NCBI GenBank assembly: GCA_001051155.2
Contig: JYIP02000004.1
Location: forward strand, 4,768,383 to 4,832,382
DNA length: 64,000 bases
Source of the DNA: Chrysoporthe austroafricana
Lineage: Eukaryota; Ascomycota; Sordariomycetes; Diaporthales; Cryphonectriaceae
Reading direction: 5' to 3'
Positions 30,526 through 64,000 of this stretch are shown here, piece after piece. Within the stretch, counting starts at the first letter, position 1. The number at the start of each line of letters is the position of its first letter. Both the position numbers and the translations under genes were made by a program. Under the pieces are notes generated by a model. The model made no database searches. It had not been told where the DNA came from and saw only the letters and a list, made by a program, of their open reading frames with translations.

Positions 30526-30554
30526 CTACCTGTCCACCCCCCTACCTGTCCACC
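30526..30554. repeat. Tandem CTACCTGTCCACC at transposon edge
   Basis: Two copies of CTACCTGTCCACC stand at 30526-30538 and 30542-30554, followed by a C9 run at 30561-30569. They sit at the change from ordinary to AT-rich DNA and just outside the transposase remnant, so they may be or adjoin its terminal inverted repeat. The matching terminus is not in the window. Confidence 0.4.
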
Positions 30555-30599
30555 CTGGCGCCCCCCCCCAAATTTCACACACATATTTCACTCCTTCGT

Positions 30600-31881
30600 T
30601 TCTCAACCACCTAAGCAACTATTATACAGTCTCCTTCAGCTACACCTATTTCGACCTCGCTCTCTTTATCTATAGCATTCCCGTCGCGATTGGCCTTGAT
30701 CTGAGCCTTCTGGATAGCTTCGATATTGACAAACTTCGAATTCGGACTAGTATCAACCTTTCTTCTTTTCGACGGCTCTCTAGCTGCATTTTGAGCTTCC
30801 AGAATCTGAATTTTTCGCTGATCCCTTGCCTGTACCAGGTCCCTCTCCTCCTACCCTTTGATTATCTTTCTGAAGAGCGTTCGGGCTATTGGCGTAGGTT
30901 CTGTCAGCCTCTGAATCTCGCGAACTTGGGCCCTCAACTCCATAATCTTCTTAGGGGTCGAATATTTATCTGGATAGCTCGAAATTGCTGGCGATTGATC
31001 TTCCGGAACTGATAAAGGTTCCCAGGCTAATATTGACTGGCTGGGGGGTTACTGACTGGCGCTCGAGACTATAAGAGGGCTTATTATCGGCTTTGCTATA
31101 GAAACTGGCCATAGATTAATAGCCTTCTACCTTAACCGAATATTTCGCTTGGAAAGGCTATTAATGCGTGTTAGGCAATAGTTTTCGAGAAATATTCGCT
31201 TGCTAGCTACGCTAGTATCGTTCCAATCTAGCAAGCCAACCCTTTTTCTATATGCCCTTTTTAAAGACGAGAAGATTCTTAGATTAAGAGGCTGGAGAAC
31301 GTATAAAGCGTGGGGAGGTAAGTAAATCAGCCGAATATTGTTCAGGAAATAAAGCTATATAAACTCTTCAGTTATATGGCTGCTATGGCTATTCAGAATT
31401 AGTAGTCTGATTTCCCTAGAGTCTTTTGGCTAGCTAGCTGGAATAAAGATCTTTTTTAGCTACTTAAAAGCCATATTATTATTCGTCCAGCTATTTTCAG
31501 TAGTAGTAAAATGCTATTCCCTGAAAGGTTCCGTATCGAGAGGAAATTATTATTGCTAGACCGTTTTCCTTTTAAAAATTACGAGAGGGGGTAGATAGTT
31601 GCTTTGAGCCGATATGCATTCGAGAAACGAAATCCAGATACGTGATCCGGGTTATTTTCTCTGTATTGAACGGCTTTGAGAGCTTCCGAGAACCAGGCCG
31701 TTATCTCCTTAGCCTTCCATTATTCTTGCTTCGTCCATATTTTATCTGTTAGCTAGTTTTATCAAGCTTATTTCTGGCTGGTTAAGGAGCTAAAACTAAA
31801 GCCGGATTACTTCTATTGTAGTTCCATTTATACGGTTTGAAGAGATCCGTCTGGCCTTTAGGGTCTTAAGGATCGGATTGC
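30600..31881 (-). mobile_element. Fot1/Pogo-type DNA transposon remnant (3' part)
   Basis: Minus-strand remnant of a Tc1/mariner-superfamily, Fot1/Pogo-type transposase (DDE_1 domain). Reading down from 31881: NPILKTLKARRISSNRINGTT; FSEALKAVQYRENNPDHVSG; the catalytic region LILNSHSSHITEEFI followed by NNIRLIYLPPHALYVLQPLN and SSLKRAYRKRVGLLDWNDTS. In this family the motif is normally (V)DGHxSH, so the catalytic Asp appears changed to Asn. Many stops from TA transitions interrupt the frame. The piece ends exactly at the left LTR of element A, and its continuation lies at 42538-42662. The end near 30.55 kb is a guess. Confidence 0.75.
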
Positions 31882-32088
31882 TGATGGTAAACGTACTGAA
31901 ATATATTATGAAGCATGGTTTTTTCAAGAAAGTGAACTACGCTAAAGCCCATTAGGGCATTATATAGGCCTCCCGGTAAGGGTATAGCATCTACCTGGTG
32001 AATTCACTGCGTATTTATCAGGGGATTCACTATAGATTTACCAGGCGAATCCATTACGAATTCACCTCGTCTATAGGTTTTGCCATCA
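31882..32088 (-). repeat. 3' LTR of element A
   Basis: A 207-bp terminal repeat beginning TGATGGTAAACGTACTG and ending TTTTGCCATCA, an inverted TGATGG/CCATCA terminus. It is preceded by ATTGC, the left target-site copy, and followed by the polypurine tract of the element. Confidence 0.9.
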
Positions 32089-32699
32089 ATTGCCGGCCCC
32101 TTATAACTTTTGTCCATAAAGGAAGCTAACTGTCAGAGACGTTTTGGGTAGCGGTAGTACGATATGGTAGGACTCTGGGTTATACGGCAAGGAAAAGCAC
32201 GACGGTATTATTAGACAAAAGAGATTATATAGGAAATAATAATCGTTTTATAAAGCCGACTCGTACCAGAGTCCTAATAGGTAAACGTACCCATGCTGGG
32301 GACTTGAATAACAAATATGCTTATGCCGGGAACTAAAAGAAAACCTGCCTATACCGGGGGCTTAGAATTGATCTTCTATTACAATCGGTTTATGCTTGGG
32401 GTGGATAAATATATATAATACTTATATATAATAAGGCTGGCCGATATCCAGGTATATTTCGGTAATGCTTAATCGTATTTATTGCCGAAATATTTGGTAT
32501 AGATATAACCAAAAACCAAAATTGCTCGTAAATATTAGTAGAAAGTATAGCTTTCAGATAATGGGATATTAAGTAAATATAATAATAATGAATATAAAAT
32601 AAAGTTACGATAGGATATATTAGTATGCAAAGCCGATAGCCGTATATAGTTATTATATAGCGATATCGTAATTAGTTTTCAATATAAATAGCTAAGTTT

Positions 32700-35166
32700 A
32701 TGAATTATTAGAAGAAAATAGCATTATATGCTACTGATAATATTATATCGATAAATGATAGCTGTATTTATTAATTAGAGGTAATTTCCCGGGCTTTAAT
32801 AGTAGTTTCAAGGTTTAATAAATTGCAAAAGAATATAGCAAATAGTTTTTCTTTTCCGATATAATTGCAAAAGTCAGTATAATTATGGATATCAAGCTGC
32901 AAGGTCTTAACCAGCTTATGCGTTTAGATATAGGACTTAAGGCTTATTATGCGATTTTAGCATTGCAAAGACCGGGCAGCGCTAAAGTAGTTTTTATTTT
33001 CGTTAGCCCATTTCTGAAAAGTAGTATTGAAATCGTAATCTATATTGTTCTTAGTAAAGACAATCTTAATAGCTTTGAAATCGTATTCGAAACGGAAGAT
33101 TTGGTTTATAATAAAATGCAAGCCCGACCGGTTAAATAAGATAATAGGATCGAGATTGCGGAGCTAAGTAACGAATTCGTATATATATTTTCTTATAGTA
33201 AAAGGGAAGAAATACTGAATGCGATTATCGTAAATTCCGATAATACTGAATTTAATATTATTATAAATAGCGAAGCTATTAGTAATATAAGGATAATTAA
33301 TGCCGAAATTGCCTTTCCAAGTAAAATTATAGCATATATATTCTTTGGATATATAAAGGGCTAGCGTACGGTAATATATTGCGATTTCGGCTTTAATAGC
33401 CTTAGATTTGGGATTATATTTGATAAATAAGGCGGGGATAGCGCAAAGCGTAGCCCGCAAGGGTAAGGTATTATTAATACTGGCTCGGGGAGCTTTGCTT
33501 GGTATGGCTAATAGGCTAGCTATGCTCGGTAAGTTATTTTCGGTTAGGTTAATAATATTATTTATAATTCGATAGCGCTTAGCTAGCGTTATAAAATTTC
33601 GCTCTATTATAGCAGATAGGCTTAGATTAGCAATTAGTATAATAGGCTTGGGAGCTTTAAGTTTAGCCAAAACTGGTTTAATATTCTTGGCTGTTTTCTT
33701 TCAGGCAATAAAGGCTATATTACGATTATATTCGTAGATTATAACGATTTCTGCTATATTGGTTGCATAGCGTATGGCATTTATTTCTTTTTTAGTAAGG
33801 TTGCTGCGACTGCTTAATATCGTTTGTTTAGCCTTATTTTTGATATAACGGCTATACTTATCTCGTAAGCAATCGTCTTTCAATATTATAGTAGGAAATA
33901 GGATATAACGAGCTATTAATAGGGTATATAAGGCAAGGATAGGATTACGAACGGTAAGTGAATTCGGAATAAATTCAAGCGATATTCCCTTAATAGAGTT
34001 ATCCGTTAGTCCGTTATTTGTATCCTCGCTCGTAATAGCATTCGCGCTAGTAAGGGTATCTGGATAAAGCTCTTATCTTTCGTAAATAAGGCTGGAACGG
34101 TCGATTTATAATAGCATAAGGTATTATAAAATAAGCTCCTGAGCTTCCTTAATAATTAGCGGCCGACTAATATCGCTACTGCCTAGCTCGGTATTAAGGA
34201 CATAAATATTATATTCGACCTTTCGGTCTATTATATTAGTATAACCCTTATTAATTAGCGCCCGATAAAAGGCTATTGTATAAGCTTCCTGGCAGCAAAG
34301 GAAATCGCTTAAGTAGTTTTTCGTTACGTAAGTATTATAGTAGAAACGGCTTTTGCTATTATATAAGTATATAGCCTACCGATATCCTTCCAAGGAGAGG
34401 CAGTCCTTGAGCGATGCCTTATAGATATACTTGGCATACTGTATAGTCTTGCTTTTTCGGCAAACTTTGGAAGGTTTTTCCTGGAATATAGGGTACGGTA
34501 CCGCATAGAAATTGGGTATAGCTAAACGTACCGTTTCTTATTAATCTTGGTCTTATAGCAAGGCATTTACGGAAGGATATAATTTGATAATCGCGTAATG
34601 CGTTTTAGTTTTGGTAGTATTAATAGCCTTATTAATACGGTCTTTGCAAGTTTATAGAAGCTTAGCGGAATAAAGCGAAATTAATAATAATATTGGCTTA
34701 ATACCCAAAAATAGTATTTAAAAGTATAATGAAAAGTAGTAATAACGGAATAATACGGCTAGCTATAATGAGTAAATAGGAATAGTAATCGTAAGCGCGC
34801 TAGTAAAAAGAAGAAAATAAAGTAAATTTACTAGCAGTTTACGAAATAATAGCCTTTTGCATTTGCCAGAAATTTATTTGCCTTATCCAGCAATTGCCCT
34901 TATCCCAATGCGCGCTTATTGCGTTACGAGTTCTTTCGATTTCTTGGAATAAATAGACTAGCTTGCTCTAATATATTTTCTGTTCGTGGGTTGCGCTTTG
35001 GCTTGCTTCGTTTTTATAAGGCAATTATAACGATATCTCCCGATTCAGGGATTTCTTCCGCTAATAGCCGCTTTCGCTTTATTCTTTCTTGCAGTTCGGC
35101 TATAGTTTCGCGTTTCCGTTCGAAATTACGTATTATTTCGTCCGCATTCAGGGCATTACGGGGCAT
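32700..35166 (-). pseudogene. Extra sense ORF of family 1 element A
   Basis: Degenerate ORF of about 800 codons on the same strand as pol, between integrase and the 3' LTR. The start at 35166 reads MPRNALNADEIIRNFERK, then a coiled-coil-like AELQER segment and a broken basic block. The copy in element D preserves that block as RKRGRPKR, an AT-hook-like motif. Other surviving parts are 33883-33701 (KDDCLRDKYSRYIKNKAKQT) and 33670-33164 (168 codons open), and the frame can be followed past a stop to about 32760 (NFNTT-like region, WANENKNYFSAARSLQ). I recognise no env, chromodomain or known domain. It is absent from element B through a 2.2-kb deletion. Confidence 0.6.
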
Positions 35167-35399
35167 CTATATATTATAATAGCTAGAGTAGTTTATCCAT
35201 TTTACCAGGTATTCAATTCTGCGCGGACTATATTTATATTTTCGCTTATAGCGGCTAATTATCTTTTCCAGCTCGTAATATCGGTAATTTTCCAGATATT
35301 TCTCGATATCCGGATTTTCTGGCATATTTACTAGGTCCTAATATATAGAGTTACGTTTATAGGGATCCGTTTTAGGAAAATTTGCAAGCGTTAATTATA

Positions 35400-38300
35400 T
35401 TATTGAGATTATTAGATAGATATTCATATAGGGAACCAATTTCAATTTATATATTAAGTTTCTTATCTTTCGAATAATTTGGAAAAATCCTATCTTCTAT
35501 TATGAAAATTTCAGAGATAGGTTATTTGGCAATAAATACCTGTAGCCCAAGCGAATATATACCCAATTATCTAGTTCGAAAACTATTTAGCAATAATGCT
35601 TATTATATTGCAATTTGGCTATTATTTGCATTTCGGCAATGAAAAGTTAAGCTTTTTCCTAGAAGATTTTCCTTGCTAAGGGTATTATATCTTCTATTTA
35701 CTAGCCTGATAATAGGTTAAATCCGAATAGCATTTGGCTGGCTGAATATTTTATAGTTCGGTTATATATATTATTTAGGTTAAATTGTAATGCCGGTATT
35801 ATTTCGGTCTATTCTGTATTAGAATAAGCGGTTATGAAATGCCGAATTGCTATTTCAACTATTCGGTTCTTTATTTCAGATTGCCCGTCCGTTTGCGGAT
35901 ACGAGGCGGTAGAGTAAGCAAGTTTCGTTCCGATAGCTTCTTACAAATATTTCCAGAATTCCGATAAGAATTTCGAGTTTCTGTTTGAGATAATCCTTTT
36001 AAGTATTCCCTAGCTAGTAATATAAAGTATCCGTAAGATAAAGGTTGCCCAGTCTGCTGCAATATATACTGCATTGCCTGGTATAATAATCGTAGCTTTG
36101 GAATATTTATCCGTAATCGTAAAAAATATATCCAGGAATAGCATTTTAGCCAGGGCTTATATAGTATTTATGAATAATATTATCGATAGTCCTATAATAA
36201 AGTCTATAATAATAGTATAGAATGGGATTAATAGAGATAATATAGGCTGCATTTCTTCTAAAGGTTGCTATAAATCGTTTTTATTTTCGTTACAAGCTCG
36301 ATATATTAATATATAATTGCGTATTTTGGCATAGCAGTATTTGATAACGAATCGATCCGTTAAGTCGTATTATATGCAATCTATGCCGAAATGGTATTTT
36401 CTATTATAAGTTTCTTTAATAAAATCCAATGCTATTTCATTCGGGATATATAATCGTTATTTCCCGTAATAATCCTTGAGAAATAATAAGCTATTATAAT
36501 CTAATATAAAAAGTAGTCGGGCAACCTTATTTGGGTCTTTCAATTATTCGATTATTTTGGACTATAAAAGGTAATTTTCGTATCCTTTCTTAATACGCCT
36601 TTTCATTTCGCTATTTATGGATATTTTATTAAGAATCTGGATAAATTCGTTTTCCCATATCTTATCTAGAACGCCTTTATTATCGATAGGTTTCTGAGTA
36701 GATAGTAATTTTGATATAGCATTTGCGAGAACGTTCGACTTTCCCAGTATATAGTATGCTTTCAGGTCGAATTGGCTTAAGTATTCCGAAATAAGAATTA
36801 GCCGCACATTTGCCTTAATCTTGTTTACCGTATTTATAAATAACGAATGGATAATGCCAACTGTCGCTATATAGTCGGTAAGGATATGAATTAGCTTAGC
36901 TCAGTTCGATTTTATTATCGTTTGCAATTTTCGTACTAGCCATACCAGATAGGCTATCTCTAGCTTTATAAGCCAGTACTTTCATTCTGTTTCGTTAATC
37001 GTTTTGCTTAAGTAAAGGATTGGTTATACGGCTATGCTTGCTATTGGCAATATTCCGTTCTATATATAATTGTTTGCTAATTGGAAAATAATGCTTGAGA
37101 ATTCTATTTCCTTAAATATATCCAGCTAGATAAAAAGAGGTTTGTCTAGGATATAATAAAATAAAGCATTCTTAGCTTCCAAGGCTATTTTGAGGTTATG
37201 AAAACTATTAATTTCGTCTAGTATTGGGTCGAAAGTAGCTTGCGTAATATAGTTTCGCTATCCTATGCCTGAAAGTAAACGGTTCGATTGGCAAATTTCG
37301 CTTAGCATCCTAGTTTTCCTTTTCTGAAATAAGTTAACTCTATAGCTATATCTAAGAATTAAGTAGCGTAAGTATCCTATAAATCCAATAAACCTTTCCA
37401 GTTGCTAGAATGTTTTAGGGAATTCCAAGTCGCGAATGGCTTGTATCCGGTATTCCGTATTGGAAATTCCGAATCCGTTTATTTTGAATCCTAAGATCTG
37501 GACTGAAGGATATCCAAGAAACGACTTGGGTTTAGCTAGTAAAATATTTTTGCGTAAAAATAGCAAGAAAATAGTTTATAAATATCGCAAATAGTCTTAT
37601 TCTGTAATTGAATGGATAACGATATTATTTATAAAAGCGGAAATAAACTTGTAATATAATTATAGGAATTGATTTATAAAATGCTGGATATAAAATAGTG
37701 AATTTCGAAATCCTATAAATAGAACTTTTATCTTTTCTTAATTACGATAATTGATAACGGTAAATCGGTCTCTATAGTCTGGATATATTAGGAATTAATA
37801 GAAAAATTGCTATATATCTATTATTGTAATATATATTTTTCTTTTTAGCTATCTGATAACTTCTTGCTATAGTAACAAAGGGTAAATATTAGGGATTGAA
37901 ACCTTGTTTAAAGCGCGTAAATCGACTATTATATATCCTTTTTTCTAGCCATTTATATTTTTCCAAATTATAAAGATTGGTAAACCGAATAACGTCGTAT
38001 TTATAACCCATTCAGCTCGACCTTATTAGTATAATTTGTCCAAAATTTCGTTAATTACCTCTTAATCTTCCTTACTTAAATAATATAACTTTTATCCTAT
38101 TTTCTGGTTTTGCTATTTTTCGACTAGATTAACTTTTATTTATTAATCGATTGGCATATTAACGGGATTTATATCTTTAAAAACTTTAGCGTATGCTTGT
38201 ATTAACTCTATAACTTTATAGAGAAATTCCGGTAAATGCTTGCAAACGTATATACTGAAATCAATTTCCGATTCCTTAATAGCTTTATTTTTCCGGATCC

Positions 38301-39600
38301 CTAATTTATTACTATTTTCGAAATAATCTCTTATTTCGGAAGTTTCCATATCCGGGAATCGGTGCTCTTCCAGCTATTTTCTAGTAATTTCTGCAATTTA
38401 TTAGAAAATATATTTAATGAATAATAATTAGTCTGAATTCAGTTTTCCTGAAAGCTATAACCTGTTCTGAATTTGTTAAAAGAGGTATTATTGCGCAATA
38501 TAATAGTAATTATCGTAATTCGCTAGCGGGGTTATATAATCTGTCTGGAATGGTTCGACTGTCTTTAAAAGTTAGTTTTTCTGGATTTTCAAAAGGGTCG
38601 CTGCCTGGTTCGTTACTAGGACTTCCTTAATCTAATGGCCTATCAAGCAATTCATTTACCCTTTCTGTTTCGGCTTAAATAGAAAGGTTACGTTTTTGAA
38701 ATTCACTTAATACTAATAGGGACTAACTTATAAGATCTGGGCGGCATTACTGTAATAGTCGCGGCTTTTGCTTGCCGGGATCGTACTAGCATTCGGGCAA
38801 ATATTTCTACTTTTACCGTAATACTACTAAAATAACTAAATCGTATAAACGATTCTGAATTCAGAATATCCAGTTCGTAAGGAATATTGTATTCCTGTCT
38901 TAGCAAAATGCTTATTTCCAGTCAATCCAATACCCAAGCTCTTATTCGGGTACGAAATATAATTGGGTAGCCGTATTTATTGCCCTAAAAATATAAGTCG
39001 AATTCAGCCTAGCTTTTTGCTAGCGACTAGCTTATGCTTTTAAGCTTGGCCTTTATATTCCAGTCTACTTTCGCCTTAAGGAATTGTACTAGCAATTCCT
39101 TAGCAATAGCATAACGATTAGCGCCTATATCGATATAAACCTTTATATCCGGCTTATTCGGGTATGCTCTAGCTGCAGCTCTTGCGTACGTATAGCTGCT
39201 GCTCTAATAAGGCTTGACCGTAAATATAAGAATATTATATCCTAAGATTTCTCTTTTCTATATATCGACTTTGGGAAAATTCTATAGCTGACTGGATAGT
39301 TATATAGGGTATTTGATATAGAATATGCTTTCGTCTACTAATAGTTTTACCTTTTCGGCTCGAAAAATCCAAATATCGTTTTCGATTATTACGTTTTCCT
39401 TATTAGCCTGTTTTTCCAATTTGTCTTCTTGCCTCTATAGGTTTTCGCTATTTTCGGTCTTTTTATTTTATTTATCGCTATTTGCTATAAACAGATTATC
39501 GTTTACGGGGAAATAGCCTTTTCGAGCTAGCTTATTTTCTTTATCTGGATTATATTATAATTTTCCGTTATCGATATTGAAATTTGCTAGGGTTAACTGG
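35400..39600 (-). pseudogene. Degenerate gypsy pol of element A
   Basis: Pol region on the minus strand. The RT part reads GLPIFIVWK near 37960, IYITIIDI near 37830 and FRNSLFYIQHFINQF near 37700, with the catalytic box as AFINNIVIHS at about 37645-37610, where Ty3/gypsy enzymes have DD. RNase H follows: LSKTINETEKKYW-like text, HILTDYIATVGI and LSQFDLKAYYILGKSNV (36807-36562). Integrase-like text continues to about 35400. The segment 38349-38143 (METSEIRDYFENSNKLGIRK) lies just before RT. Boundaries are approximate because no frame stays open. Confidence 0.75.
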
Positions 39601-42062
39601 ACAAAACGTTCTCTAGCATCTTTTCGTACGAATTAATAGTAAAAGCGCGATTGGAAATTTCGGTTTTTTGAAATTAAACTTTTACTATTATTTATAATAT
39701 TGGTTAATATTTTCCTGGCTATACTAGAAATATTTTGTTATTTGGCTATCCGTTCCCGTAATTAGTTCCGAACGTCTATTAGCTTTCGCTATTATTCTAA
39801 TAAGAGTTTTCGGAATTCGTATTCCGGGATATATCTAATGCTTTTGGATAGATTTGGCTAGTTAAACGTTTTTATCGAACAGGATAAATATTCAGGTCCT
39901 TAAGGCCTGAATCTTCTAGGGCATTCTGGGAATATATTGGCTGGGAAGTAAATATTAATATTGGGAAGATTAGCAGCCGATTGCGTAATTTTCTATACCG
40001 GTTATGCGGGTTTACGAGATAGTCTTATTATGCGGTCTAATTCGAAAATATGCTATATCTCTTATTTCGCCTTAAGACGTTTTTCGAAATCTTTCGCATT
40101 CTTATTTCGATTAGGTCTATCGAAATATCTAGCTATTAATTTTTTATCGATCCGATCCTAGATATTTCTGGCTAAGTACGAGTTTGGGTATTCGGCTAGC
40201 TTGATAAATCGACAGATATAATAAATGAATTCTAGAATATTGCAGTTATTTCGTATATCTTTCCTGGAATATTATTAGGCATTTAGCAAGTCCTTTGCAG
40301 TTTTCTGCAATATAGAGAAATCTCTTCTTAATTATTTCTTCTATTAGCTCTAATTATGCTTACGCAAAGTAAAGTCTTTACGCTTTTAGGAAGATAATAT
40401 AGAATAGAACTAAATATATGCTATCCTAACTAAGCAAGCGGGTAAATAAAAGCTAAGATATTTAGCGCGTTCTGCATTTCTGGCTATATATATCTTATAC
40501 CGGTCTATAAAGGCTTAAGAGTTTTTCCAGATAATAATTTTGCTATCTATAATGAATATAATTATTAAGTTAGCATAATCGTTCTAATTCTCGTAAAATC
40601 GGAATCGCTTTATAACCGTATCTTTGAATTCCTTATTAATGCTAACGGGCAATGCTATAAGTTCAAGTAAATCAGGTTGATATATTCGGGGATTTTTGAA
40701 TTGCTTATAGCCGAATAATAGGTTTCGAAAATTATTACTTTCATTATTGCTGGAATCCGATAAATCCGGTAATCTATCTGGCTTATTAACTAGTTCTTCT
40801 TGGAAATTAGGGTTAATTTCAATATTTAGCTCGGGGCCCGAAAATAATCTTTAGTCTAATTAACTTCCTGCCCCTAATATAAATATCTGCCGGATGCATT
40901 CCCTAATATCAGGAAATGCCGGTCTGGTAGAGCGATATCTGTTATTAGCGTAATATTTCGCGGCCGAAACGGGAAAGGGTTCCTTAATAAGTTCCGATTA
41001 AAGCGCTTGCATATTGAAAGCTTGTTATAATCGGAATATTTTCTTGAACCCAATGCGTATTGCCCTTTCCGAAATAAAGCCGTTTTGGTAGATTGCTTTC
41101 ATTTCGGGTCGTTACAGAAACTGGTCTAATAGGCCAGTAACTGGGAAAGAAAGGATCGGGTATTTCTGAAAGATAATAATGAGATTGTCCGATTTTCTTT
41201 TATCTAATCTTTCTTTTTCATAATCTTCTTCTTTAAGGAATTGCGGATAATCCGATAAACCCGATTGGGGCATTAATATGCTTTTTGCTATAAAGTTTAT
41301 AAGATTGGCCGGGATAGCTGTAATAGAATTTTATCTAGAAGCATTCCGATTCTAGGCTCCCGTTAGGAAGAAAGAAATGCGCTTATTTCCTAGAATTAAT
41401 TATTTTCTTTTATCTTTATCTATTCTTCTTACCGTAATTGAAAAATTCCCGGATTTATTAGTAAATCTGGAATTTGGGTTTTCGGTCGAATATCGTAATG
41501 GATAAATGTATTTGATTCCGCTATTAGTATTAGTATATTCAAGCATATAATGCTTTCGATTTTCGATAGATTATTATTAGGCTAATTTTTCTAACGAATT
41601 TTCCGGGTTATTAGATTAAAAGGTATTTTCGCTCTCGTTTATTTCTATAAGCATTTATTATCGTTCTTTTTCCGTTATCGCCTTAGCAAGCTTTCGAAGT
41701 TTGCAATATTTGGAAAAATCTTCCCAGAACGTATTATTCTTTCTTATTCACTAAGATAGATTCTTATCGAAATTCGACTTTCTTCCCTCTTAAGTCCATT
41801 ATTTAAGCAGTAAAAGCTATCCTTGTTTAATTATCCATGCCTTTACTTTTTGCAAAAGTGCATTAGCTTCCCTAGAATTCTGCTTTGCCTTTTCGTATTG
41901 ATCGGCCAAAAGTTTCCAATCGATAAAAGCGTACGCAATTTCGAGAAAGATCTTGATATCCGATATAACCCAATCCTTCTTTTCAGAATCGTTCAAGGCT
42001 TATATAAACTTGTATACCTGGGCGGAATGCTTAATTTCGATATAATCGATAGGCCGCGGTAA
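39600..42062 (-). pseudogene. Degenerate gag of element A
   Basis: The minus strand from about 42050 reads DSEKKDWVISDIKIFLEIAY and LLADQYEKAKQNSREANALL, a polar helical protein as expected for the start of gag, followed by a long degraded tract with many TAA/TAG codons. The same text, in the opposite orientation, is found in element C (54530-56650). I assign gag from position and homology between copies; no zinc knuckle was identified. Confidence 0.5.
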
Positions 42063-42125
42063 TAAAACGTTATTGCCAGTAATTGCTATAATGAATTGGC
42101 AATGAATTGTCGATAAATAATTATA

Positions 42126-42300
42126 ATATCTCTTACAGGAACGCTACCTCTATAAAGGCCGATATCCTACAGGACCGATATTCTTACAAGAGCCGATACT
42201 TTATAGAGCCGATACCTCTACAGAAGCCGTTATCTTATAGGACCGATATTCCTATAGGAGCCGTTGCTTTACAGAGCCGATAATCGAAACCCGATTACGC
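42126..42300 (-). repeat. Tandem repeats in family 1 leader
   Basis: About eight imperfect 15-19 bp units near CTATAGGAGCCGATAT lie between the 5' LTR and gag. The same array occurs reversed in element C at about 54290-54430, so it belongs to the element. It may be a structured leader or simple tandem expansion. Confidence 0.65.
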
Positions 42301-52301: not shown

Positions 52302-52306
52302 TTTAT

Positions 52307-52699
52307 GCTAGCAAAAATAATATTAAATATAACCTTGAATACCGGAAAACTTATTAACAAGTATTTACAATATTTATAAGCTTGTATAGCTATTACTTGA
52401 ATGTCTAATAGGGTTTAAATAGTACTTAAATTTTCGATTGAAAAGCTATAATAATTTATTTAATAAATATCCTATTTTTATATATCTAGCTTTTCAGTTC
52501 GAAACCGATAAGACTGCTATCGATATTGTTAGTTTATATAAAACCGTTAAAACCGATAGTAATTTTATCGGTCCAACCCCTAACCCTAAATTACGTAATC
52601 CCTGTAAATATTTCTTGATAAAGTCGTTATATATGCTAACTTATTAGCCCTTCCCGCCTTTTAGTATATTAGCAAGCTATTCTATATTGGGTTATAACA
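52307..52699 (-). repeat. Rest of the W LTR
   Basis: Continuation of the LTR begun at 44741, after removal of X and one TTTAT. It diverges from the X LTR after AGCTTTTCAG and carries CCCCTAACCCTAA at 52577-52589. It ends TTATAACA, the intact form of the family 2 terminus. Confidence 0.7.
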
Positions 52700-52739
52700 T
52701 TATTCTTTTCCTATTAATTAGCATCTCTAACAATTTTCC

Positions 52740-53330
52740 GTAAGGCTTTTATTAACCCTTTCTTTTTACTATTCCTTCTTTAATTAGGATATCTTGCAAA
52801 GTCGAAAAACGTTTTTATAAGAAAACGGATTAGAGCAATACTCTTTAGCTTACGGTTTTTTCTCGCTATTCGGAAATGCTTGCATGCTTTTTCTATTCGG
52901 GTCGTAACCTTTTTTATTACGTTTCGGAAAAGAATTCCTCTCGTTATGCCAAATATATTCGCAGCAAGCGTAGCAATTGCGATATAGCGGGCCTTATTCC
53001 CGTTCAGATATAGCGGATTATAAAATAGCATTCTCAAGTTAAAGCGGAATTGGATGCTATTAAAGAAAAAGCGATATTGGCTAATATTAAAGTTTTTCGG
53101 TTACGGAAATAGCGCTATTTATAAGCCGAGAAAATAGCTCGCGCAATATATCGAGGTCTGGATATTATTGAGGAATTAGAACGGCTGGAAGCAGAGGAGG
53201 CGGAAGAAGAGTATTGCAAGGCTGGGACCGAATATCGTATTTCGGGGCCTTTAGTTCCCGAAAGCCCTTTTCCCGAGAGTTTCGATTTAGATATTGCCTT
53301 ATAGCAATTTAATTTTAGTATCAATTAGTC
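52740..53330 (+). pseudogene. Antisense Cys-rich coiled-coil ORF in W
   Basis: Second copy of the family 2 antisense ORF. The plus strand reads SSRYAKYIRSKRSNCDIAGL, where Tyr probably replaces Cys (TGC to TAC), then VKAELDAIKEKAILANIKVF and IEELERLEAEEAEEEYCKAG and ends in ESPFPESFDLDIAL. Order and spacing match the copy in X, which shows that the ORF is part of the element. Confidence 0.6.
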
Positions 53331-54024
53331 TATTATTAATCCGTTTGCAAGGCATAAAGCTATTCCGAGTCCCTTTAATTATTCTTCTAGCTAATTGATT
53401 AGTTATTTTTCTTAATATTTTCTAAGTGCTTATTATGCATTATTTAGGTTGCTAATTAGTTCTTAGCTGTTTTCGCTTGGGTAATATCTTTTCCATTTGA
53501 TTAGGTATTCTTTATATTTGGTTGATTTTCGATATTTAAGGATTCGTTCGATTTCGTATTCTGGTTTGTTAATTTCGATTTATACCGATTTGTCCGTCCT
53601 AATTGCTTTTAATACTAGTTCGAAAAATAAGATATGGAATACCGGGTAGATTTTCATTTTATAAAGTAATATAAATTCAAAATTAATATCCGAGATTTTC
53701 TTTAAGATTCTGAATAAGCTAAGCTTCTTATAATCTAATAAGTAAGAAAGTTTTATTATTCTGATATATTCTTTTCGACAAATAAGATAAACTTTATCCT
53801 TCCTTTGTAAGATTGGTCTTTTAATTCTTTTGGAATTGGCATATCTTATTATTCTTTCTTATACGAATTTTAATTTTTCTTGAAGTTTTTTCTGAACTTT
53901 CTTAATTTTCTTAGTTCGTTTTTCTGCTGCTTTTGTATTTGCTTTCAGTAGCTCGTTATAATAGGCTATTAAGTTATAGTTATAAAGTGCATAAAACGGT
54001 AATTTTTTTATTATACTTATATTT

Positions 54025-54232
54025 TAATAGCAAAACTTATAAATATAGTAAATTTATAATAAATTCGCTTAATAAATTTATAGTAAATCCCTTAGTAAAT
54101 ATATAGTAAATTTACTAAATGAATGCTATACCCTTATTGGAAGGCTTATATAATGCTTTAATAGGCTTTTAGCATAGTTTACTTTTTTAAGAAAATTATG
54201 CTTTATAATATATTTTAATACGTTTATTATCA
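54025..54232 (+). repeat. 5' LTR of element C
   Basis: A 208-bp family 1 LTR in reverse orientation to those of A, heavily TA-shifted. The left flank is TATTT; the partner copy would lie beyond the window. Confidence 0.8.
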
Positions 54233-56671
54233 ATTAATAGCTACGCTTTATACGCTTTTGCTATATAATCGAGTTTCGATTATCGGCTTTATAAAGCAAT
54301 AGCTTTTATAAGAATATCGATCCTATAAGATAACGGCTTCTATAAAAATATCGGCTTTATAAAGTATTAGCTTTTATAAGAATATCGGTCTTATAAGATA
54401 TTAGCTTCTGTAAAAATAGCATTCCTATAGGAAATATTATAATTATTTATCGATAATTTATTATTAATTTACTATAATAATTACTAGCAATAACGTTTTA
54501 TTATTATAGCCTATCGATTATATCGAAATCAAATATCTTGCTTAAATATACAAGTTTATATAAGCTTTGAATAATCCTAAAAAGAAAGATTAAGTTATAT
54601 CGGATATTAAGATCTTTCTCGAAATCGTATGCGCTTTTGTTAACTGGAAACTTTTAGCCGATCGATACGAAAAAGCGAAGCAGAATTCCAGGGAAACTAA
54701 TGCACTTTTGCAGAAAGCAAAGGCATAGGTAATTAAGTAAGGATAGCCTTTATTGCTTAAGCAGTGAACTTAAAAAGGAAGAAAGTCGAATTTTGACGAG
54801 AATCTATTTTAGTAAATAAGAAAGAATAATACGTTTTAAAAGGATTTTTCCAAATATCGCAAATTTCGATAGCTTGCCGAAATAATAATGGAAAAAAAGC
54901 GAAAATAAATGTTTATAGAAATGAATAAGAGCGAAAATACTTTTCGATTTAATAATTCGGAAAATTTATTAAAAAAATTAGCTTAGCAATAATTTATCGA
55001 AAATCGAAAGTATTATATGCTTGAATATATTAATACTAATAGCAAAATCAAATATATTTATTTATTACGATATTCGACCGAAAATTTAAATTTTAGATTT
55101 ATTAATAAATCCGGGAATTTTTCAATTACAGTAAGAAAAATAAATAAAAGCAAAAGAAAATAATTAATTTTAAGAAATAAATATATTTCTTTCCTTTTAA
55201 TAAAAGCCTAGAATCGGAATACTTTCAAATAAAGTTCCATTATAGCTATTCCGGCTAATTTTATAAATTTTATAGCAGAAAATATATTAATGCTTTAATC
55301 AGATTTATCGGATTATTTATAGCTTTTCGGAAAAGAAAATTATAAGGAAAAAAGACTGGATAAAAGAAAATCGGATAGTCTTATTATTATCTTTCAGAAA
55401 TACCTGACTTTTTCTTTCCCAATTACTAACCTATTGGACCAGTTTTTGCAATAACCCGAAATGAAAGCAATTTACCGAAATAGCTTTATTTCGAAAAAAG
55501 TAATACGTATTAAATTCAAGAAAATATTCCGATTGCAATAAGCTTTCAATATATAAACGCTTTAATCGGAACTTATTAAAAAACCTTTTCCTATTTCGGT
55601 TATAAAATATTACGCTAATAACGGATATCGCTTTATTAAACTAATATTTTCTAATATTAAAAAATATATCCGATAGATATTTATATTAAAAGCAAGAAAT
55701 TAATTAAACTAAAGATTATTTTCAAGTTTTAAGCTAAATATTAAAATTAACTTTAATTTCCAAAAAGAATTAATCGGTAAACTAGATAAACTATTAAATT
55801 TATCGAATTCTAGTAATAGTAAAAGCAATAATTCTCGAAACTTATTATTCGGCTATAAGCAATTCAAAAATCCTCGAATATATCGACTTAATTTACCCAA
55901 ACTTATAGTATTGCTTATTAGCATTAATAGGAAATTCAAAAATACGGTTATAAAGCAATTCCGACTTTATAAGAATTGAAATAACTATATTAATTTAATA
56001 GTCGTATTTATTACAAATAGCAAAATTATTATTTGGAAAGACTTTTAAGCCTTTATAGATTAGTATAAGATATATATAGCTAGAAATACAAAATGCGCTA
56101 AATATTTCAGCTTTCATTTACTTGCTTGCTTAATTAAAATAGTATATATTTAATTCTATTCTATATTATTTTCTTAAAAATATAAAAACTTTATTTTACG
56201 TAAATATAATTAAAGCTAATAGAAAAAGTAATTAAGAAGAGATTTCTCTATATTGCGGAAAACTGCAAAAGACTTACTAAATGCCTAATAATATTCCAGA
56301 AAAAATATATAAAATAACCGTAATATTCTGGAATTTATTTATTATATTTATTAATTTACTAAGCTAGCCGAATATTCAAACTCGTATTTAGCTAGAAATA
56401 TTTAGAATCGGATTAATAAAGAACTAATAGCTAAATATTTCGATAGATTTAGTTAAAATAAAAATGCAAAAGATTTCGAAAAATATTTCAAAGCGAAATA
56501 AAAGATATAGCATATTTTCAAATCAGATTGCATAATAAGACTATTTCGTAAACTTGCGCAACCGGTATAGAAAATTATGCAATCGGCTGCTAATCTTCCT
56601 AATATTAATATTTACTTCCCAATTAATATATTCCTAAAATGCTTTAAAGGATTTAGGCTTTAAGGACTTAA
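54025..56671 (+). mobile_element. Gypsy element C, family 1, plus strand, truncated by D
   Basis: Left part of a family 1 element in opposite orientation to A. The 5' LTR is 54025-54232, starting TAATAGCAAAAC and ending TTATTATCA. The primer site ATTAATAGCTACGC, the leader tandem repeats (54290-54430) and gag follow; the sequence is the reverse complement of A from 42537 down to about 39880. It stops at 56671, where the LTR of D begins in the middle of homology, so D inserted here. It is itself inserted in W at 54024. Confidence 0.8.
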
Positions 56672-56878
56672 TAATAGTAAACGTACTGAAATATATTATA
56701 AAGCATAGTTTTTCCAAGAAAGTGAACTACGCTAAAGCCTATTAGGGCATTATATAAGCCCCCCGGTAAGAGTATAGCATCCACTTAATAAATTCATTGC
56801 ATATTTACCAAAGGATTTATTATAAATTTACCAGGCAAATCCATTACGAATTCACCTCGTCTATAGGTTTTGCTATTA
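56672..56878 (-). repeat. 3' LTR of element D
   Basis: A 207-bp LTR starting TAATAGTAAACGTACTG and ending TTTTGCTATTA, preceded by CTTAA, the expected target duplication, and followed by the family purine tract. Confidence 0.85.
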
Positions 56879-57499
56879 ATTACCGGCCCTTTATAACCTT
56901 TATCTACAAAGGAAGCTAACCGTTAGAGACGTCTTGAATAGCGGTAGTACGATATAGTAAGACTCTGGATTATACGGCAAGAAAAAGCATAACAGCATTA
57001 TTGGACAAAAAAGATTATATAAGAAATAATAATCGTTTCATAAAGCCGACTCGTATTAGAATTCTAATAAGTAAACGTGCTTATGCTAGGGACTTGAATA
57101 ATAAATATGCTTATGCCGGGAACTAAAAGAAAACCTGCTTATGCCGGGAGCTTAGAATTGATTTTCCATTACAATCGGTTTATACCTAGAATGGATAAAT
57201 ATATATAGTATTTGTATATAATAAGGCTAGCCGATATCCAAATATATTTCGGTAATGTTTAATCGTATTTATTGCCGAAATATTTAGTATAAATATAATT
57301 AAAAACTAAAATTGCTCGTAAATATTAATGAAAGGTATAGCTTTCAGATAATAGAGTATTAAGTAAGTATAATAATAATAAATATAAAATAAAGTTATAA
57401 TAGAATATATTAGCATGCAAAGCCGATAGCTGTATATAGTCGTTATATAGCAATATTATAGCTAGTCTTTAATATAAATAGCTAGATTTATAAATTATT

Positions 57500-59956
57500 G
57501 GAAGAAAGCAATATTATATATTGCTAATAATATTATATCGATAAATAATAGCTATATTTATTAATTGGGAATAACTTCCTAAACTTTAGTAATAGCTTTA
57601 AAGTTTAGTAAATTGCGAAAGAATATAGCAAATAGTTTTTCTTTTCCGATATAGTTGCAAAAGTCGGTATAATTATAGATATCAAATTGCAGAATCTTGA
57701 CTAGCTTATGCGCTTAGATATAAGATTTGAAACCTATTATACGATTTTAGCATTATAAAAACCGGGTAGCGCTAAAGTAATCCTTATTTTCGTTAGCCTA
57801 TTTCTGAAAAGTAATATTGAAATCGTAATCCATATTATCTTTAATAAAGACGATTTTAATAGCCTTAAAGTCGTATTCGAAATAGAAGATTTAGTTTATA
57901 ATAAAATATAAGCTTAACCGGTTAGATAAGATAATAGGATCAAAATTGCAAAACCAAATAACGAACTCGTATATATATTTTCCTATAGTGAAAGGGAAGA
58001 AGTACTGGATACGATTATCGTAAATTCCGATAATGCCGAACTTAATATTATTATAAATAGCAAAGCCGTTAGCAATATAAGGATAGTTAGTACCGAAATT
58101 GCTTTTTCAAATAAAATTATAGCGTATATATTCCTTGGATATATAAAAGGCTAGCATGCAGTAATATATCGCGATTTCGGCTTTAATAACCTTGAACTTA
58201 AAATTATATTTAATAGATAAGGCGGAAATAATGCGAGGTATAGCCCGTAAGGGCAAAATGCTATTAATATTAGCTCGGAAAGCTTTATTTGGTATAGCTA
58301 ACAAACTAGCTATATTCAGTAAATCGTTCTCGGTTAAATCGATAATATCGTTTATAACTCGATAATGCTTGGCTAGCATTATAAAGTTTCGCTTTATTAT
58401 AGCAAATGGGTTTAAATTAGCAATTAGCATAATAGGCTTGAAAGCTTTAAGCTTAACCAAAACTGGCTTGATATTCTTAGCTATTTTCTTTTAAGCAGCA
58501 AAAGCTATATTATAATTATATTCGTAAATTATAACGATTTCTGCTATATTGGCTGTATAGCGCATAGCATTTACTTTCTTTTTAGTAAGATTGCCGTAAT
58601 TGCTTAATATTATTTATTTAGCTTTATTTTTGATATAACAGCTATGCTTATTTCGTAAGCGATTATCTCTCGATATTATAATAGGAAATAGGACGCGATA
58701 AGCTATTAATAGGGTATATAAAGCAAAGACAGAATTACGAACGGTAAATGAATTCGAAATAAATTCAAGCGATATTTCTTTAATAGAGTTATCCGTTAAT
58801 CCGTTATCTGTATCCTTGTTCGTAATAGCATTTGCGCTAGTAAAAATGCTTAGATAAAACTCCTATCTTTCGTAAATAAAGCTAGAGCGGTCAATCCATA
58901 ACGGCATAAAGTACTGTAAAATAAGCTTTTAAGCTTCCTTAATAGTTAACGGCCGATTAATATTGCTATTGCTTAGCTCGGTATTAGGGATATAAATATT
59001 ATATTCGACTTCTCGATTTACTATATCGGTATAACCTTTACTGATTAGCGCCCGATAAAAAGTTATTGTATAAGCTTCCTAATAGCAAAAGAAATCGCTT
59101 AAATAATTCTTCGTTATATAAATATTACGGTAGAAACGGCTTTCGTTACTATATAAATATATAGCCTACCGATATCTTTTCAAAGAAAGGCGATCCTTAA
59201 GCAATACTTTATAAATATATTTAGCATATTATATAATTCTGCTTTTTCGGCAAACCTTAAAAGGTTCTTCCTAGGATATAAAGTACGGTATTGCATAGAA
59301 ATTAAGCATAGCTAAACGTACCGTTTCTTATTAGTTTTAGTCTTATAATAAAGCATTTATAAAAGAATACGACTTGATAATCGCATAACGCATTTTGATT
59401 TTAATAATATTAATAGCCTTATTAATATAATCCTTACGGGTTTACGGAAACTTAGCAAAGTAAAGCGAAATTGATAATAATACTGGCTTAATACTCAAAA
59501 ATAATATTTAAAAATATAATAAAAGGTAATAATAACGGAATAATACGGCTAGCTATAATAAATAGATAGGGATAATAATCGTAAGCGCATTAGTAAGAAA
59601 AGGAAAATAAAGTAAATTTACTAGCAATTTACGAAATAATAGCCTTTTGCATTCGTTAGAAATTTACTTACTTTACTTAGCAATCGCCTTTATCCTAATG
59701 CGCGCTTATTGTATTGCGAATTCTTTCGATTTCTTAGAATAAATAGATTAGCTTGTTCTAATGCATTTTCTGTTCGTAAATCGCGCTTTGGCCTGCCTCG
59801 TTTTCGTAAGGCAATTATAACGATATTTCCCAATTCAGGGACTTCTTCCGTTAATAGCCGCCCTTGCTTTGCTCTTTCTTGCAATTCGGCTATAGTTTCG
59901 CATTTCCGTTCGAAATTACGTATTATTTCGTCCGCATTCAGGGCATTACGGGGCAT
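57500..59956 (-). pseudogene. Extra sense ORF of family 1 element D
   Basis: Better preserved copy of the ORF between integrase and 3' LTR. From the ATG at 59956 it is open for 88 codons: MPRNALNADEIIRNFERKC, ETIAELQERAKQGRLL, then NIVIIALRKRGRPKRDLRTE with the AT-hook-like core RGRPKR. A second open block is 58460-58107 (MVKLKAFKPIMLIANLNPF), matching 33670-33164 in A. Conservation of start, motif and order in two insertions argues for a real element protein. Function unknown. Confidence 0.6.
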
Positions 59957-60149
59957 TTATATATTATAATAGCTAGAATAATTTATCCATTTCATTAAGT
60001 ATTCAATTTTGCGCGGATTATATCTATACTTTCGCTTATAGCAGCTAATTATTTTTTCTAGCTCGTAATATTAATAATCTTCCAAATATTTCTCGATATC
60101 CGGATCCTCTAGCATATCTATTAGGTCTTAATATATAAAGTTACGTTTA

Positions 60150-63100
60150 TAGAAATCCGTTTTAAGAAAATTTGTAAGTATTAATTATATTACTGAAATT
60201 ACTAAATAGATATTTATATAAGGAATTAATTTCAATTTATACGCTAAGTTCCTTATTTTTCGAATAACTTGGAAAAATCTTATTTTTTATTATAAAAATT
60301 TCAGAAATAAATTACTTAGTAATAAGTATCCGTAACCCAAGCAAATATATACCCAATTATTTAATTCGAAAACTATTTGGCAATAATGCTTATTATATTG
60401 CAATTTAGCTATTATTTACGCTTTAATAATAAAAAATTAAGCTTTTTCCTAGAAAATTTCCCTTGCCAGAAATATTATATCCTTTATCTATTAGCCCGAT
60501 AATAAATTAAATTCGAATAGCATTTAGCTAGCTAAATATTTTATAGCTCGGTTATACGCATTATTTAGATTAAATTATAATGCTAGTATTATTTCGGTTT
60601 ATTCTGTATTAGGGTAAGCGGTTATAAAATGCCGAATTGCTATTTCAACTATTCGGTTTTTTATTTCAGATTGCTTATCCGTTTGCGAATACGAAACGGT
60701 AGAGTAAACAAATTTCGTTCCGATAGCTTTTTATAAATATTTCCAGAATTCCGATAAGAATTTCGAATCTCTATTTAAAATAATCCTCTTAAGTATTCCT
60801 TAACTAGTAATATAAAGTATCCGTAAGATAAAAGTTACCCAGTTTATTATAATATATATTACGTTATTTAATATAATAATTATAGCTTTAGAATATTTAT
60901 CTGTAATTATAAGAAATATATCCAGGAATAGCATTTTAGCTAGAGCTTATATAATATTTATAGATAGTATTATCGGTAATCCTATAATAAAGTCTATAAT
61001 AATAATATAGAATAGGATTAGTAAAAATAATATAAGCTATATTTCTTTTAAGGGTTATTATAAATCGTTTTTATTCTTATTATAAGCTCGATATATCGAT
61101 ATATAATTGCGTATTTTAGCATAGCAGTATCTGATAACGAATCGATCCGTTAAATTATGCTATATACGGTTTATGCCGAAATAATATTTTCTATCGTAAG
61201 CTTCTTTAATAAAATCCAATATTACTTTATTCGGGATATATAATCGTTATTTCCTATAATAATCCTTAAGAAATAATAAGCTATTATAATCTAATATAAA
61301 AAGTAATCGGGCAACCTTATTTAAATCTTTTAGTTATTCGATTATTCTGAATTATAAAGGGTATTTTTCGTATCCTTTCTTAATACGCCTTTTCATTTCG
61401 CTATTTATAGATATTTTATTAAAAACTTGAATAAGTTCGTTTTCCTATATCTTATTTAGAACGCCTTTATTATCGATAGGTTTCTGGGTAAATAGCAATC
61501 TTAATATAGCATTTACGAGAACGTTCGACTTTCCTAGTATATAATATGCTTTCAAGTCGAATTGGCTTAAATATTCCGAAACGAGAATGAGTTATATATT
61601 TGCTTTAATTTTATTTACTGTATTTATAGATAACGAATGGATAATGCCAACTATTATTGCGTAATCGGTAAAGATATAAACTGGCTTAGCTCGGTTCGAT
61701 TTTATTATCGTTTGCAGCTTTCGTATTAGCTATATTAAATAGGCTATTTCAAGCTCTATAAGCCAGTATTTTCGTTCTGCCTTATTAATCGTCTTACTTA
61801 AATAAAGGATTAATTATATAGCTATGCTTGCTATTAGCAATATTCTATTCTATATATAATCGTTTGCTAATTGGAAAATAACATTTGAAAATCCTATTTC
61901 CTTAAACGCATCTAACTAAATGAAAAGAGGTTTGTCTAAGATATAATAAAACAAAGCATTCTTAGCTTCCAAAGCTATTTTGAAATTATAAAAATTATTA
62001 ATTTCGTTTAGCATTAAATCGAAAATAGCTTGCATAATATAGTTTTGCTATCCTATATTTAAAAGTAAATAATTCAATTAGCAAGCCTTGCTTAATATTC
62101 TAGTTTTCCTTCTCTGAAATAGATTAACTCTATAGCTATATCTAAGAATTAAGTAGCATAAGTATTCTGTAAATCCAATAAACCTTTCCAGTTACTAGAA
62201 TATTTTAGGGAATTCCAGATTGCGAATGGCTTGCATCCGGTATTCCGTATTGGAAATTCCGAATCCGTTTATTTTGAATCCTAAGATCTGGACTGAAAAA
62301 TATCCAAGAAACGATTTGAATCTAGCTAGTAAAATATTTTTGCATAAAAATAGCAAGAAAATAGTTTATAAATATTGCAAGTAATCTTATTCTATAATTA
62401 AATAGATAACGATATCGTTTATGAAAGCAGAAGCAAACTTATAGTATAGTCGTAAGAATTAATCTATAAAATGCTAGATATAGGATAATAAATTTCGAAA
62501 TCCTATAAGTAGAACTTTTATCTTTTCTTAATTACGATAATTAATAACGATAAATCGGTTTCTATAATTTAAATATATTAGGAATTAATAGAAAAATTGT
62601 TATATATCTATTACTGTAATATATATTTTTCCTTTTAGTTATTTGATAATTTCTTGCTATAATAGCAAGGGGTAAGTATTGGGGATTGAAATTTTATTCA
62701 AAACGCGTAAATCGATTATTATATATCTTTTCTTTTAGCCATTTATATTTTTCCAAATTACAAAAATTAATAAACCGAATAGCATTGCATTTATAACCTA
62801 TTCAGCTCGACTTTGCTAATATAACTTATTCAAAACTTTATTAATTACTTCTTAATCTTCCTTATTTAAATAATATAGCTTTTATTCTATTTTTTGGTTT
62901 TATTATTTTTCGATCAAATTAACTTTTATTTATTAATCGATTAGCATATTAACGAGACTTATATTTTTGAAAATTCTAATATATGCCCGTATTAATTCCA
63001 TAACTTTATAGAGAAATTCCAATAAATGCTTGCAAACGTATATACCGAAATCAATTTCCGATTCTTTAATAGCTTTATCTTTCCAGATCTCCAATTTATT

Positions 63101-64000
63101 ATTATTTTCGAAATAATCTCTTATCTCGAAAATTTCCATATCCGGGAATCGGTATTCTTCTAGCTATTTTCCAGTAATTTCCGTAATTTATTGGAAAATA
63201 TGCTTAATGAATAATAATTAATCTGAATTCAGCTTTTCTGAAAGCTATAACCCGTTTTAAGTTTATTGAAAAAAGTATTATCGCGCAATATAATAATAGT
63301 TATCGTAATTCGCTAATAGGGTTATATAATCCGTTTAAAATAATTCGACTATCTTTAAAAATTAGTTTTTTTGAATCTTTAAAAGGGTTGCTGCTTAATT
63401 CGTTATTAAAACTTCCTTAATTTAATAGCCTATCAAGCAATTTATTTATTCTTTCTGTTTCGGCCTGAATAAAAAGGTTATATTTTTAGGATTCGCTTAA
63501 TACTAATAGAAATTAGCTTATAAAATCTGGGCAGCATTACTATAATAGTTGCAGCCTTTGCTTGCCGGGATCGTACTAATATTCGGGCAAATACTTCCAT
63601 TTTTACCGTAATATTATTAAAATAACCAAATCGTATAGACAATTCTGAATTCAAAATATCCAGTTCGTAAAGAATATTATATTCCTATTCTAATAAGATA
63701 CTTGCTTTTAATCGATCCAATACTCAAGCTTTTATTCGGGTACGAAATATAAATAAATAGCTATATTTATTGCCCTGGAAATATAAATCGAATTCAGCTT
63801 AGCCTTTTGCTAGTAATTAGCTTACGCTTTTAAGCTTAGCCTTTACATTCCAGTTTATCTTTGCTTTAAAGAATTATATTAGCAATTCCTTAGCAATAAT
63901 ATAATAACTAGCGTTTATATTAATACAGACCTTTATATCTAGCTTATTTGAATATATTCTGGTTATAGCTTTTGCATATATATAGCTATTGCCCTAATAA
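60150..64000 (-). pseudogene. Degenerate gypsy pol of element D, partial
   Basis: Homologous to 35400-39230 in element A on the same strand: integrase-like text near 60150-61300, RNase H text near 61350-61800, and RT text near 62000-62800 with AFINDIVIYL. No frame is open over 70 codons. The N-terminal part of pol lies outside the window. Confidence 0.7.

What the first reader, a model, noticed from the sequence alone, without database searches (positions are those of the whole stretch)
30526..64000. Transposon stack nested several levels deep, resolved from target duplications
Terminal repeats and 5-bp duplications order the insertions: Pogo-type transposon entered by A (ATTGC) and B; B entered by a solo LTR (TATAT) and by W; W entered by X (TTTAT) and C; C entered by D. 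D is therefore younger than C, C and X younger than W, W younger than B, and B and A younger than the DNA transposon. Few windows allow such a full order of events.
Basis: partly seen in the sequence, partly recalled or inferred. Interest (0 to 1): 0.75.

Follow-up and report, generated by a model that had tools for sequence, protein, structure and literature searches.

The report
Five-level transposon stack inside one transposon
A 71,000-base AT-rich block in a fungal chromosome is one small DNA transposon swollen by nine later insertions, seven of them into one another, and the predicted missing halves were found downstream; such stacks are known in fungi, but this one is unusually complete.

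Summary
Confirmed and extended. Reading 50 kb downstream recovered the missing right halves of D, C, W, B and the Pogo-type transposon in the predicted order, with both predicted duplications (C: TATTT exact; D: CTTAA/CTTGA, one base off). Uninterrupted Pogo copies show both sites empty. Two other measures agree with the nesting: mutation load (B > C > E, D) and transversion splits (B,(C,(A,D,E))); F against B does not. All 258 LTR-pair differences in seven elements are transitions, so they measure repeat-induced point mutation (RIP, inferred), and LTR dating fails. The order is partial: A versus B, and X, C, E among themselves, stay unordered. Nested clusters are published for fungi; this is a large, fully accounted member of a known kind.

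The parts
30512..31881 (-). Pogo-type DNA transposon, left piece with a 51-bp terminal inverted repeat; TA duplication at 30510-30511. Right end at 101793, TA at 101794-101795, beyond the window
   Evidence: TIR identical at both ends; DDE_1 transposase domain 87.6 bits on the minus strand at G000:C17:4799602-4800018 = window 31220-31636; flanks read
42543..42662 (-). Pogo-type transposon, middle piece between A and B
   Evidence: contiguous with both other pieces in genomic copies L002, L005, L006 and L008
31877..31881 (.). ATTGC target duplication, left copy (right copy 42538-42542)
31882..42537 (-). A: complete 10,656-bp family-1 LTR element, 207-bp LTRs (coding strand judged from weak or by-eye protein signs)
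   Evidence: self-alignment, LTR pair 16 transitions and 0 transversions in 207
42663..43872 (-). B: family-1 element, first piece; B ends at 101428, AGCCT at 42658-42662 and 101429-101433; about 2.2 kb of its interior is missing within this piece
43873..44321 (+). S: solo family-2 LTR in B, opposite in orientation to W and X, TATAT on both sides
44327..44740 (-). B, second piece, ending at the W insertion (GCTCG 44736-44740)
   Evidence: B resumes at 90867
44741..44793 (-). W: family-2 LTR element, first 53 bp of its LTR, interrupted by X; W ends at 90866
44794..52301 (-). X: complete 7,508-bp family-2 Ty3/gypsy element inside W's LTR, TTTAT on both sides
   Evidence: LTR pair 50 transitions and 0 transversions in 445; RVT_1 fragment over cut-off and SH3_Tf2-1 fragment just under it; RT_RNaseH 75.8 bits at window 47614-47934
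52302..54024 (-). W, second piece, up to the C insertion (TATTT 54020-54024); resumes at 75194
54025..56671 (+). C: family-1 element in the opposite orientation to A, first piece; C ends at 75193
56672..64000 (-). D: complete 10,656-bp family-1 element inside C; ends at 67327 (CTTAA 56667-56671, CTTGA 67328-67332)
35170..35337 (-). stop-free piece of A resembling a chromodomain
   Evidence: Pfam Chromo E 0.001, 19.4 bits, below its cut-off of 25.1

Best explanation
A single Pogo-type DNA transposon sits in gene-rich DNA. LTR retrotransposons of two families then inserted into it and into one another, each copying 5 bp of target, until about 1.85 kb had become 71.3 kb. Shown: the boundaries, the duplications, the nesting Pogo > {A, B}; B > {S, W, F}; W > {X, C, E}; C > {D}, and an assignment of every base to one of ten elements. 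Shown: the family-1 copies and the LTR pairs of both families differ almost only by transitions. Inferred: this is RIP. Inferred with less support: growth stays confined because family-1 elements land in, or survive only in, AT-rich silenced DNA, perhaps through a chromodomain on the integrase.
For: Self-alignment of 114 kb; duplications 7 of 8 exact against 0 of 56 mispaired; both Pogo insertion sites empty, with 5-bp overlap, in copies L002, L005, L006 and L008 of the seven other copies compared; 71,284 bp assigned to ten elements with none left over, counting the left TA. RIP-like load, as the A/T state at columns that differ by a transition: C:D 1122:649, B:D 791:296, B:E 712:333, B:C 593:429, each with the older element higher. 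Transversion splits over columns shared by A-E: B alone 39, BC against ADE 4, C alone 7, six further patterns 1 each. LTR pairs: 258 transitions, 0 transversions over 1,926 columns in seven elements. Long open frames with protein-domain matches lie on both sides of the block. 35 of 36 family-1 edges found elsewhere have 800-base flanks under 40% GC, against 29% of 120 background blocks; 28 of 36 abut family 1, family 2 or Pogo directly.
Against: F, inside B, carries as much RIP-like load as B (264:284, p 0.42). LTR-pair differences rank C (34/208) slightly above its host W (69/444), not significant (p 0.82), and none of the four LTR comparisons tested between older and younger elements is significant (p 0.06 to 0.82). 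D's duplication has one mismatch. The CpA preference is mild (0.43 for CA, 0.27 to 0.35 for the other contexts in the C-D comparison), and several 2-kb blocks and element E fail standard RIP indices (thresholds recalled). The chromodomain match is below cut-off. The 36 edges come from copies chosen for likeness to A.
Confidence: 0.93

Rival explanations
1. The block is a mis-joined assembly of repeats; the nesting is an artefact of collapsing many similar copies.
For: Both LTR families have hundreds of candidate places in the genome (194 and 497).
Against: Exact 5-bp duplications pair across 58.8 kb (B), 46.1 kb (W) and 21.2 kb (C), with 0 of 56 mispairings matching; B, C and W resume at the interrupted position; no N in the 114 kb read.
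Confidence: 0.03
2. The nesting is real, but the load gradient is not a clock: it reflects where each copy lies or which subfamily it came from.
For: B comes from a more distant lineage (39 private transversions); F equals B; A, at the edge of the block, has the lowest load.
Against: D lies in the middle of the block, between two pieces of C, and still has less load than C in each of 11 bins along the element; lineage difference should add few transitions where transversions are so few (C and D differ by 24 transversions and 1,771 transitions).
Confidence: 0.25
3. The stack is part of a centromere, and the elements are centromere-specific retrotransposons.
For: A long AT-rich retrotransposon block in gene-rich DNA; nested clusters are reported mainly in putative centromeres of some fungi (passage in PMC4522978).
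Against: Family 1 occurs at many separate places on the same contigs: four further places on C17 and eight on C1 among the 40 scored rows; 6 of 20 evenly spaced background stretches average under 35% GC.
Confidence: 0.05

Closest known systems
Nested TE clusters of Mycosphaerella graminicola (PMC4522978; passages and the whole of section 8 seen)
   Same: RIP-affected clusters resolved by base element and mostly 5-bp duplications; LTR insertions into a DNA-transposon or unclassified base are reported there too
   Different: There 78 clusters of 7.5 to 63 kb with 2 to 7 different elements; the deepest chain in its Table 4 (LTR-element bases only) is a base plus three levels. Here 71.3 kb, ten element copies of three families, base plus four levels, with every base assigned
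AT-rich isochores and 'fissures' of Pyrenophora teres (PMC5915480, passages seen)
   Same: Variable AT-rich, TE-filled blocks between conserved gene-rich stretches
   Different: That paper removed LTR elements with nested insertions from its detection set; here the nest itself is resolved
[quoted passage not shown] listing of PMC3605345 and others; otherwise recalled)
   Same: Family 1 has LTRs, 5-bp duplications and a weak chromodomain-like piece
   Different: No reverse transcriptase profile hit was obtained for family 1; roughly 3 kb of further sequence lies between the chromodomain-like piece and the LTR

Membership tests
Nested LTR-element cluster | Host sequence continues on both sides of each insert at the interrupted position | tested here: met
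   for F only the right side remains
Nested LTR-element cluster | Matching target duplications at each insert | tested here: met
   7 of 8 exact, 1 of 8 with one mismatch; F could not be tested because its left end is deleted
Pogo/Fot1 (Tc1-mariner) transposon | TA target duplication | tested here: met
   30510-30511 and 101794-101795
Pogo/Fot1 (Tc1-mariner) transposon | Terminal inverted repeats | tested here: met
   51 bp identical at both ends
Pogo/Fot1 (Tc1-mariner) transposon | DDE_1 transposase | tested here: met
   87.6 bits over positions 4-140 of 177, 7 stops inside
Pogo/Fot1 (Tc1-mariner) transposon | CENP-B-type DNA-binding domain | not tested
   no call aimed at it
Ty3/gypsy (family 2: W, X) | Reverse transcriptase and RNase H | tested here: met
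   in X: RVT_1 31.1 bits on a fragment (cut-off 29.6); RT_RNaseH 75.8 bits with 7 stops inside
Ty3/gypsy (family 2: W, X) | Integrase region downstream of RT and RNase H | tested here: inconclusive
   SH3_Tf2-1 match E 3.8e-6, 27.3 bits against a cut-off of 30, in the expected place
Chromovirus (family 1: A-F) | Reverse transcriptase of Ty3/gypsy type | tested here: inconclusive
   the stop-free pieces tried gave no RT or RNase H hit; motifs resembling RNase H and integrase seen by eye only
Chromovirus (family 1: A-F) | Integrase chromodomain | tested here: inconclusive
   Chromo E 0.001, 19.4 bits, below cut-off 25.1
RIP | Divergence almost wholly by transitions | tested here: met
   258 transitions to 0 transversions in LTR pairs; A-D 1,609 to 8
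RIP | CpA preference | tested here: met
   CA highest in all five pairs examined, but mildly; RIP indices mixed
RIP | Dependence on the sexual cycle and RIP genes | not testable with these tools
   needs crosses

The most novel reading that the evidence does not exclude
The stack is a natural time series of RIP. Nesting gives the order of residence, and the load of each layer records how long it was exposed, so such stacks can calibrate RIP per unit of time where LTR dating fails. In addition, RIP-silenced DNA may itself be the landing site of the next family-1 element, so that defence and invasion together build AT-rich isochores from a single transposon.
Probability: 0.4. Interest if true: 0.6.

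Novelty: new member of a known kind. Interest (0 to 1): 0.42.

Why it matters
It shows the full birth history of one AT-rich block in a compartmented fungal genome: one seed of about 1.85 kb, nine insertions, nothing left over. It also gives a caution and a tool. LTR-pair divergence here is entirely transitional; at the rate used in PMC4522978 (1.05e-9 per site per year) it would date these elements to 40 to 101 million years, whereas the absence of transversions over 1,926 pooled columns allows only about 2 million years on average if transversions are a third of ordinary mutations (an assumption). That paper already warned that RIP may inflate LTR ages. Nesting order offers a check on RIP as a clock that needs no mutation rate.

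Tried and rejected
Centromere reading: rejected, because family 1 is dispersed over many places. LTR-pair identity as an age scale: rejected, because none of the four comparisons tested is significant and all change is transitional. Comparing load between W and X: rejected, because they look like distinct subfamilies (280 transversions in 6,486 columns). State of the duplications as a test of RIP before or after insertion: too few informative bases; D's duplication differs by one base between its copies. A homologue for the 178-aa stop-free piece 33167-33700 (minus strand): none scored among 113 candidates. Genome-wide test of host load against insert load at 18 family-1-in-family-1 junctions: dropped, because the letters could not be fetched and the sampled copies were picked for likeness to A, which biases them towards low load. 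Naming the species: not attempted by search; the protein families seen suggest a filamentous ascomycete, which is recalled knowledge.
Full report
Setting. The window is G000:C17:4768383-4832382 of an unnamed 48.15-Mb genome in 22 contigs. Its first 30 kb has 45 to 61% GC per 2-kb block and holds open frames matching a P-type cation ATPase, an MFS transporter, a kelch protein, a DUF2293 protein and scytalone dehydratase. From about 32 kb the GC content falls to 14-34% per 2-kb block and stays low until about 102 kb; then GC rises again (48% and more), with frames matching a Rad5-like helicase, a squalene/phytoene synthase and, below cut-off, an MFS transporter. Coordinates above 64000 continue the window numbering into L009-L013.

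Observation. Self-alignment of the 114 kb and reading of all ends gives: Pogo-type element 30512-101793 (TA); A 31882-42537 (ATTGC); B 42663-101428 (AGCCT; its first base reads C where other copies read T); S, a solo LTR, 43873-44321 (TATAT); W 44741-90866 (GCTCG); X 44794-52301 (TTTAT); C 54025-75193 (TATTT); D 56672-67327 (CTTAA/CTTGA); E 76565-86678 (GATTT); F, its left end deleted, 95319-101198. Nesting: Pogo > {A, B}; B > {S, W, F}; W > {X, C, E}; C > {D}. The assignment leaves no base of 71,284 unassigned (that count includes the left TA). B lacks about 2.2 kb near its start and about 2.1 kb near its end, the latter lost together with the left part of F, most simply in one deletion (inference). 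E lacks about 0.5 kb and C about 0.15 kb relative to A.

Is it chance? Own flanks match exactly in 7 of 8 elements; F cannot be tested. Mispaired flanks match in 0 of 56, though 6 of 56 come within one mismatch, so D's 4-of-5 match alone would be weak; D's two complete ends and C's continuation on both sides carry it. One search found 46 Pogo matches; loci were given for eight, and the seven besides the window's own were compared (L002-L008). In L002, L005, L006 and L008 the three window pieces are contiguous, with 5-bp overlaps, so both sites are empty. L004 looks empty at both sites too but has a family-2 LTR inserted elsewhere in the left piece; L003 has the A site empty and a solo family-2 LTR a few bases from the B site; in L007 the hits stop short of the joins and were not used.

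What the parts are. The Pogo-type element has a 51-bp TIR, TA duplications and a DDE_1 domain. Family 2 (S, W, X) is Ty3/gypsy by RVT_1, RT_RNaseH and a Tf2-1-like SH3 match just under cut-off, all in X. Family 1 (A-F) is an LTR element of 10.66 kb with 207-208-bp LTRs; its only relevant profile evidence is a sub-threshold chromodomain, so calling it a chromovirus is a lead. In the roughly 3 kb between that piece and the LTR, the stop-free pieces tried gave nothing over a Pfam cut-off (the best, E 0.008, was a bacterial propeller far below its cut-off) and the longest gave no homologue.

Order tested by other means. At columns where two copies differ by a transition, the copy with more A or T is taken to bear more RIP-like load. 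Pairs ordered by nesting: B:C 593:429, B:D 791:296, B:E 712:333, C:D 1122:649, all with the older copy higher; B:F 264:284, no difference, which counts against a strict clock. Over 2,026 such columns shared by A-E the A/T share is A 0.27, D 0.43, E 0.48, C 0.58, B 0.66; over 1,223 shared by all six, F has 0.645 and B 0.624. Transversion splits over columns shared by A-E: B alone 39, C alone 7, BC against ADE 4, A, D and E alone 1 each, AE, AD or DE against the rest 1 each. This fits older insertions coming from older source lineages. LTR pairs: A 16/207, B 36/208, C 34/208, D 27/207, E 26/207, X 50/445, W 69/444, all transitions; they rank C above its host W, and none of the four older-younger comparisons tested is significant.

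Mechanism. Shown: transitions only in the LTR pairs and nearly only in the interiors, highest at CpA but mildly so. Inferred: RIP. The standard indices are mixed: several 2-kb blocks have a negative composite index, and E as a whole has (CA+TG)/(AC+GT) of 1.11. The Pogo host, older than A and B by nesting, is less AT-rich (44% GC) than anything inside it, so load cannot be compared across families. Of the 40 family-1 rows scored among 194 candidates, the 39 other than A were examined: the outer edge was found in 36 and not in 3; 35 of 36 have under 40% GC in the 800 flanking bases; 28 of 36 abut family 1, family 2 or Pogo. The background was 20 stretches of 5 kb evenly spaced over 11 large contigs, falling on 10 of them: 29% of 120 blocks of 800 bases are under 40% GC, and 7 of 20 stretches hold pieces of these elements. 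The 39 copies were chosen for likeness to A, flank GC can be lowered after insertion, and at least one edge (L047) looks like an internal LTR junction rather than a fresh insertion. Targeting by a chromodomain and removal of insertions in genes would look alike here.

Known or new. Nested, RIP-affected clusters resolved by duplications are published: PMC4522978 reports 78 clusters of 7.5 to 63 kb with 2 to 7 different elements and itself warns that RIP may inflate LTR ages (section 8 seen whole, passages otherwise). PMC5915480 describes AT-rich TE fissures (passages). PMC9970103, PMC4210507, PMC11540331 and PMC10787394 were seen as passages. In nine paper searches no listed title, opening of an abstract or passage that I saw uses nesting order to check RIP load as a clock. 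That is weak evidence of absence: some lists were cut (12 of 15, 12 of 54, 8 of 17), the search aimed most closely at it returned no paper, and the library is open-licence papers only.

Verdict. The thing is a large, clean member of a known kind; the added value is the complete accounting, the agreement of nesting with two other measures (with F as exception), and the demonstration that LTR divergence here measures RIP-like change, not time.

Noticed in passing
window 33167-33700 (minus strand): 178-aa stop-free frame in the stretch between the chromodomain-like piece and the LTR of element A; no Pfam match and no homologue found. Possibly the remnant of an extra gene in family 1.
   Followed up: partly
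L003 about 2949-3374: Another Pogo copy carries a solo family-2 LTR only a few bases from the position where B entered the window's Pogo copy.
   Followed up: partly
window 30512-30562 (and 101743-101793 beyond the window): The 51-bp Pogo terminal repeat contains a C-rich unit of about 16 bp twice in tandem and is identical at both ends, although the transposase domain inside has seven stops.
   Followed up: no
junction at about 95318/95319, continuation coordinates (L012): B (forward) joins directly to F (reverse) with the left part of F and about 2.1 kb of B missing, best read as one deletion of roughly 7 kb.
   Followed up: partly
window 29275-29859: An open frame matching scytalone dehydratase ends about 650 bp from the edge of the block; the stretch between keeps about 48-51% GC, so no AT-rich leakage is visible.
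   Followed up: no
L047 edge at about 1041: One family-1 LTR start is preceded by family-1 internal sequence, as in copies sharing an LTR in tandem, rather than by a fresh target.
   Followed up: no
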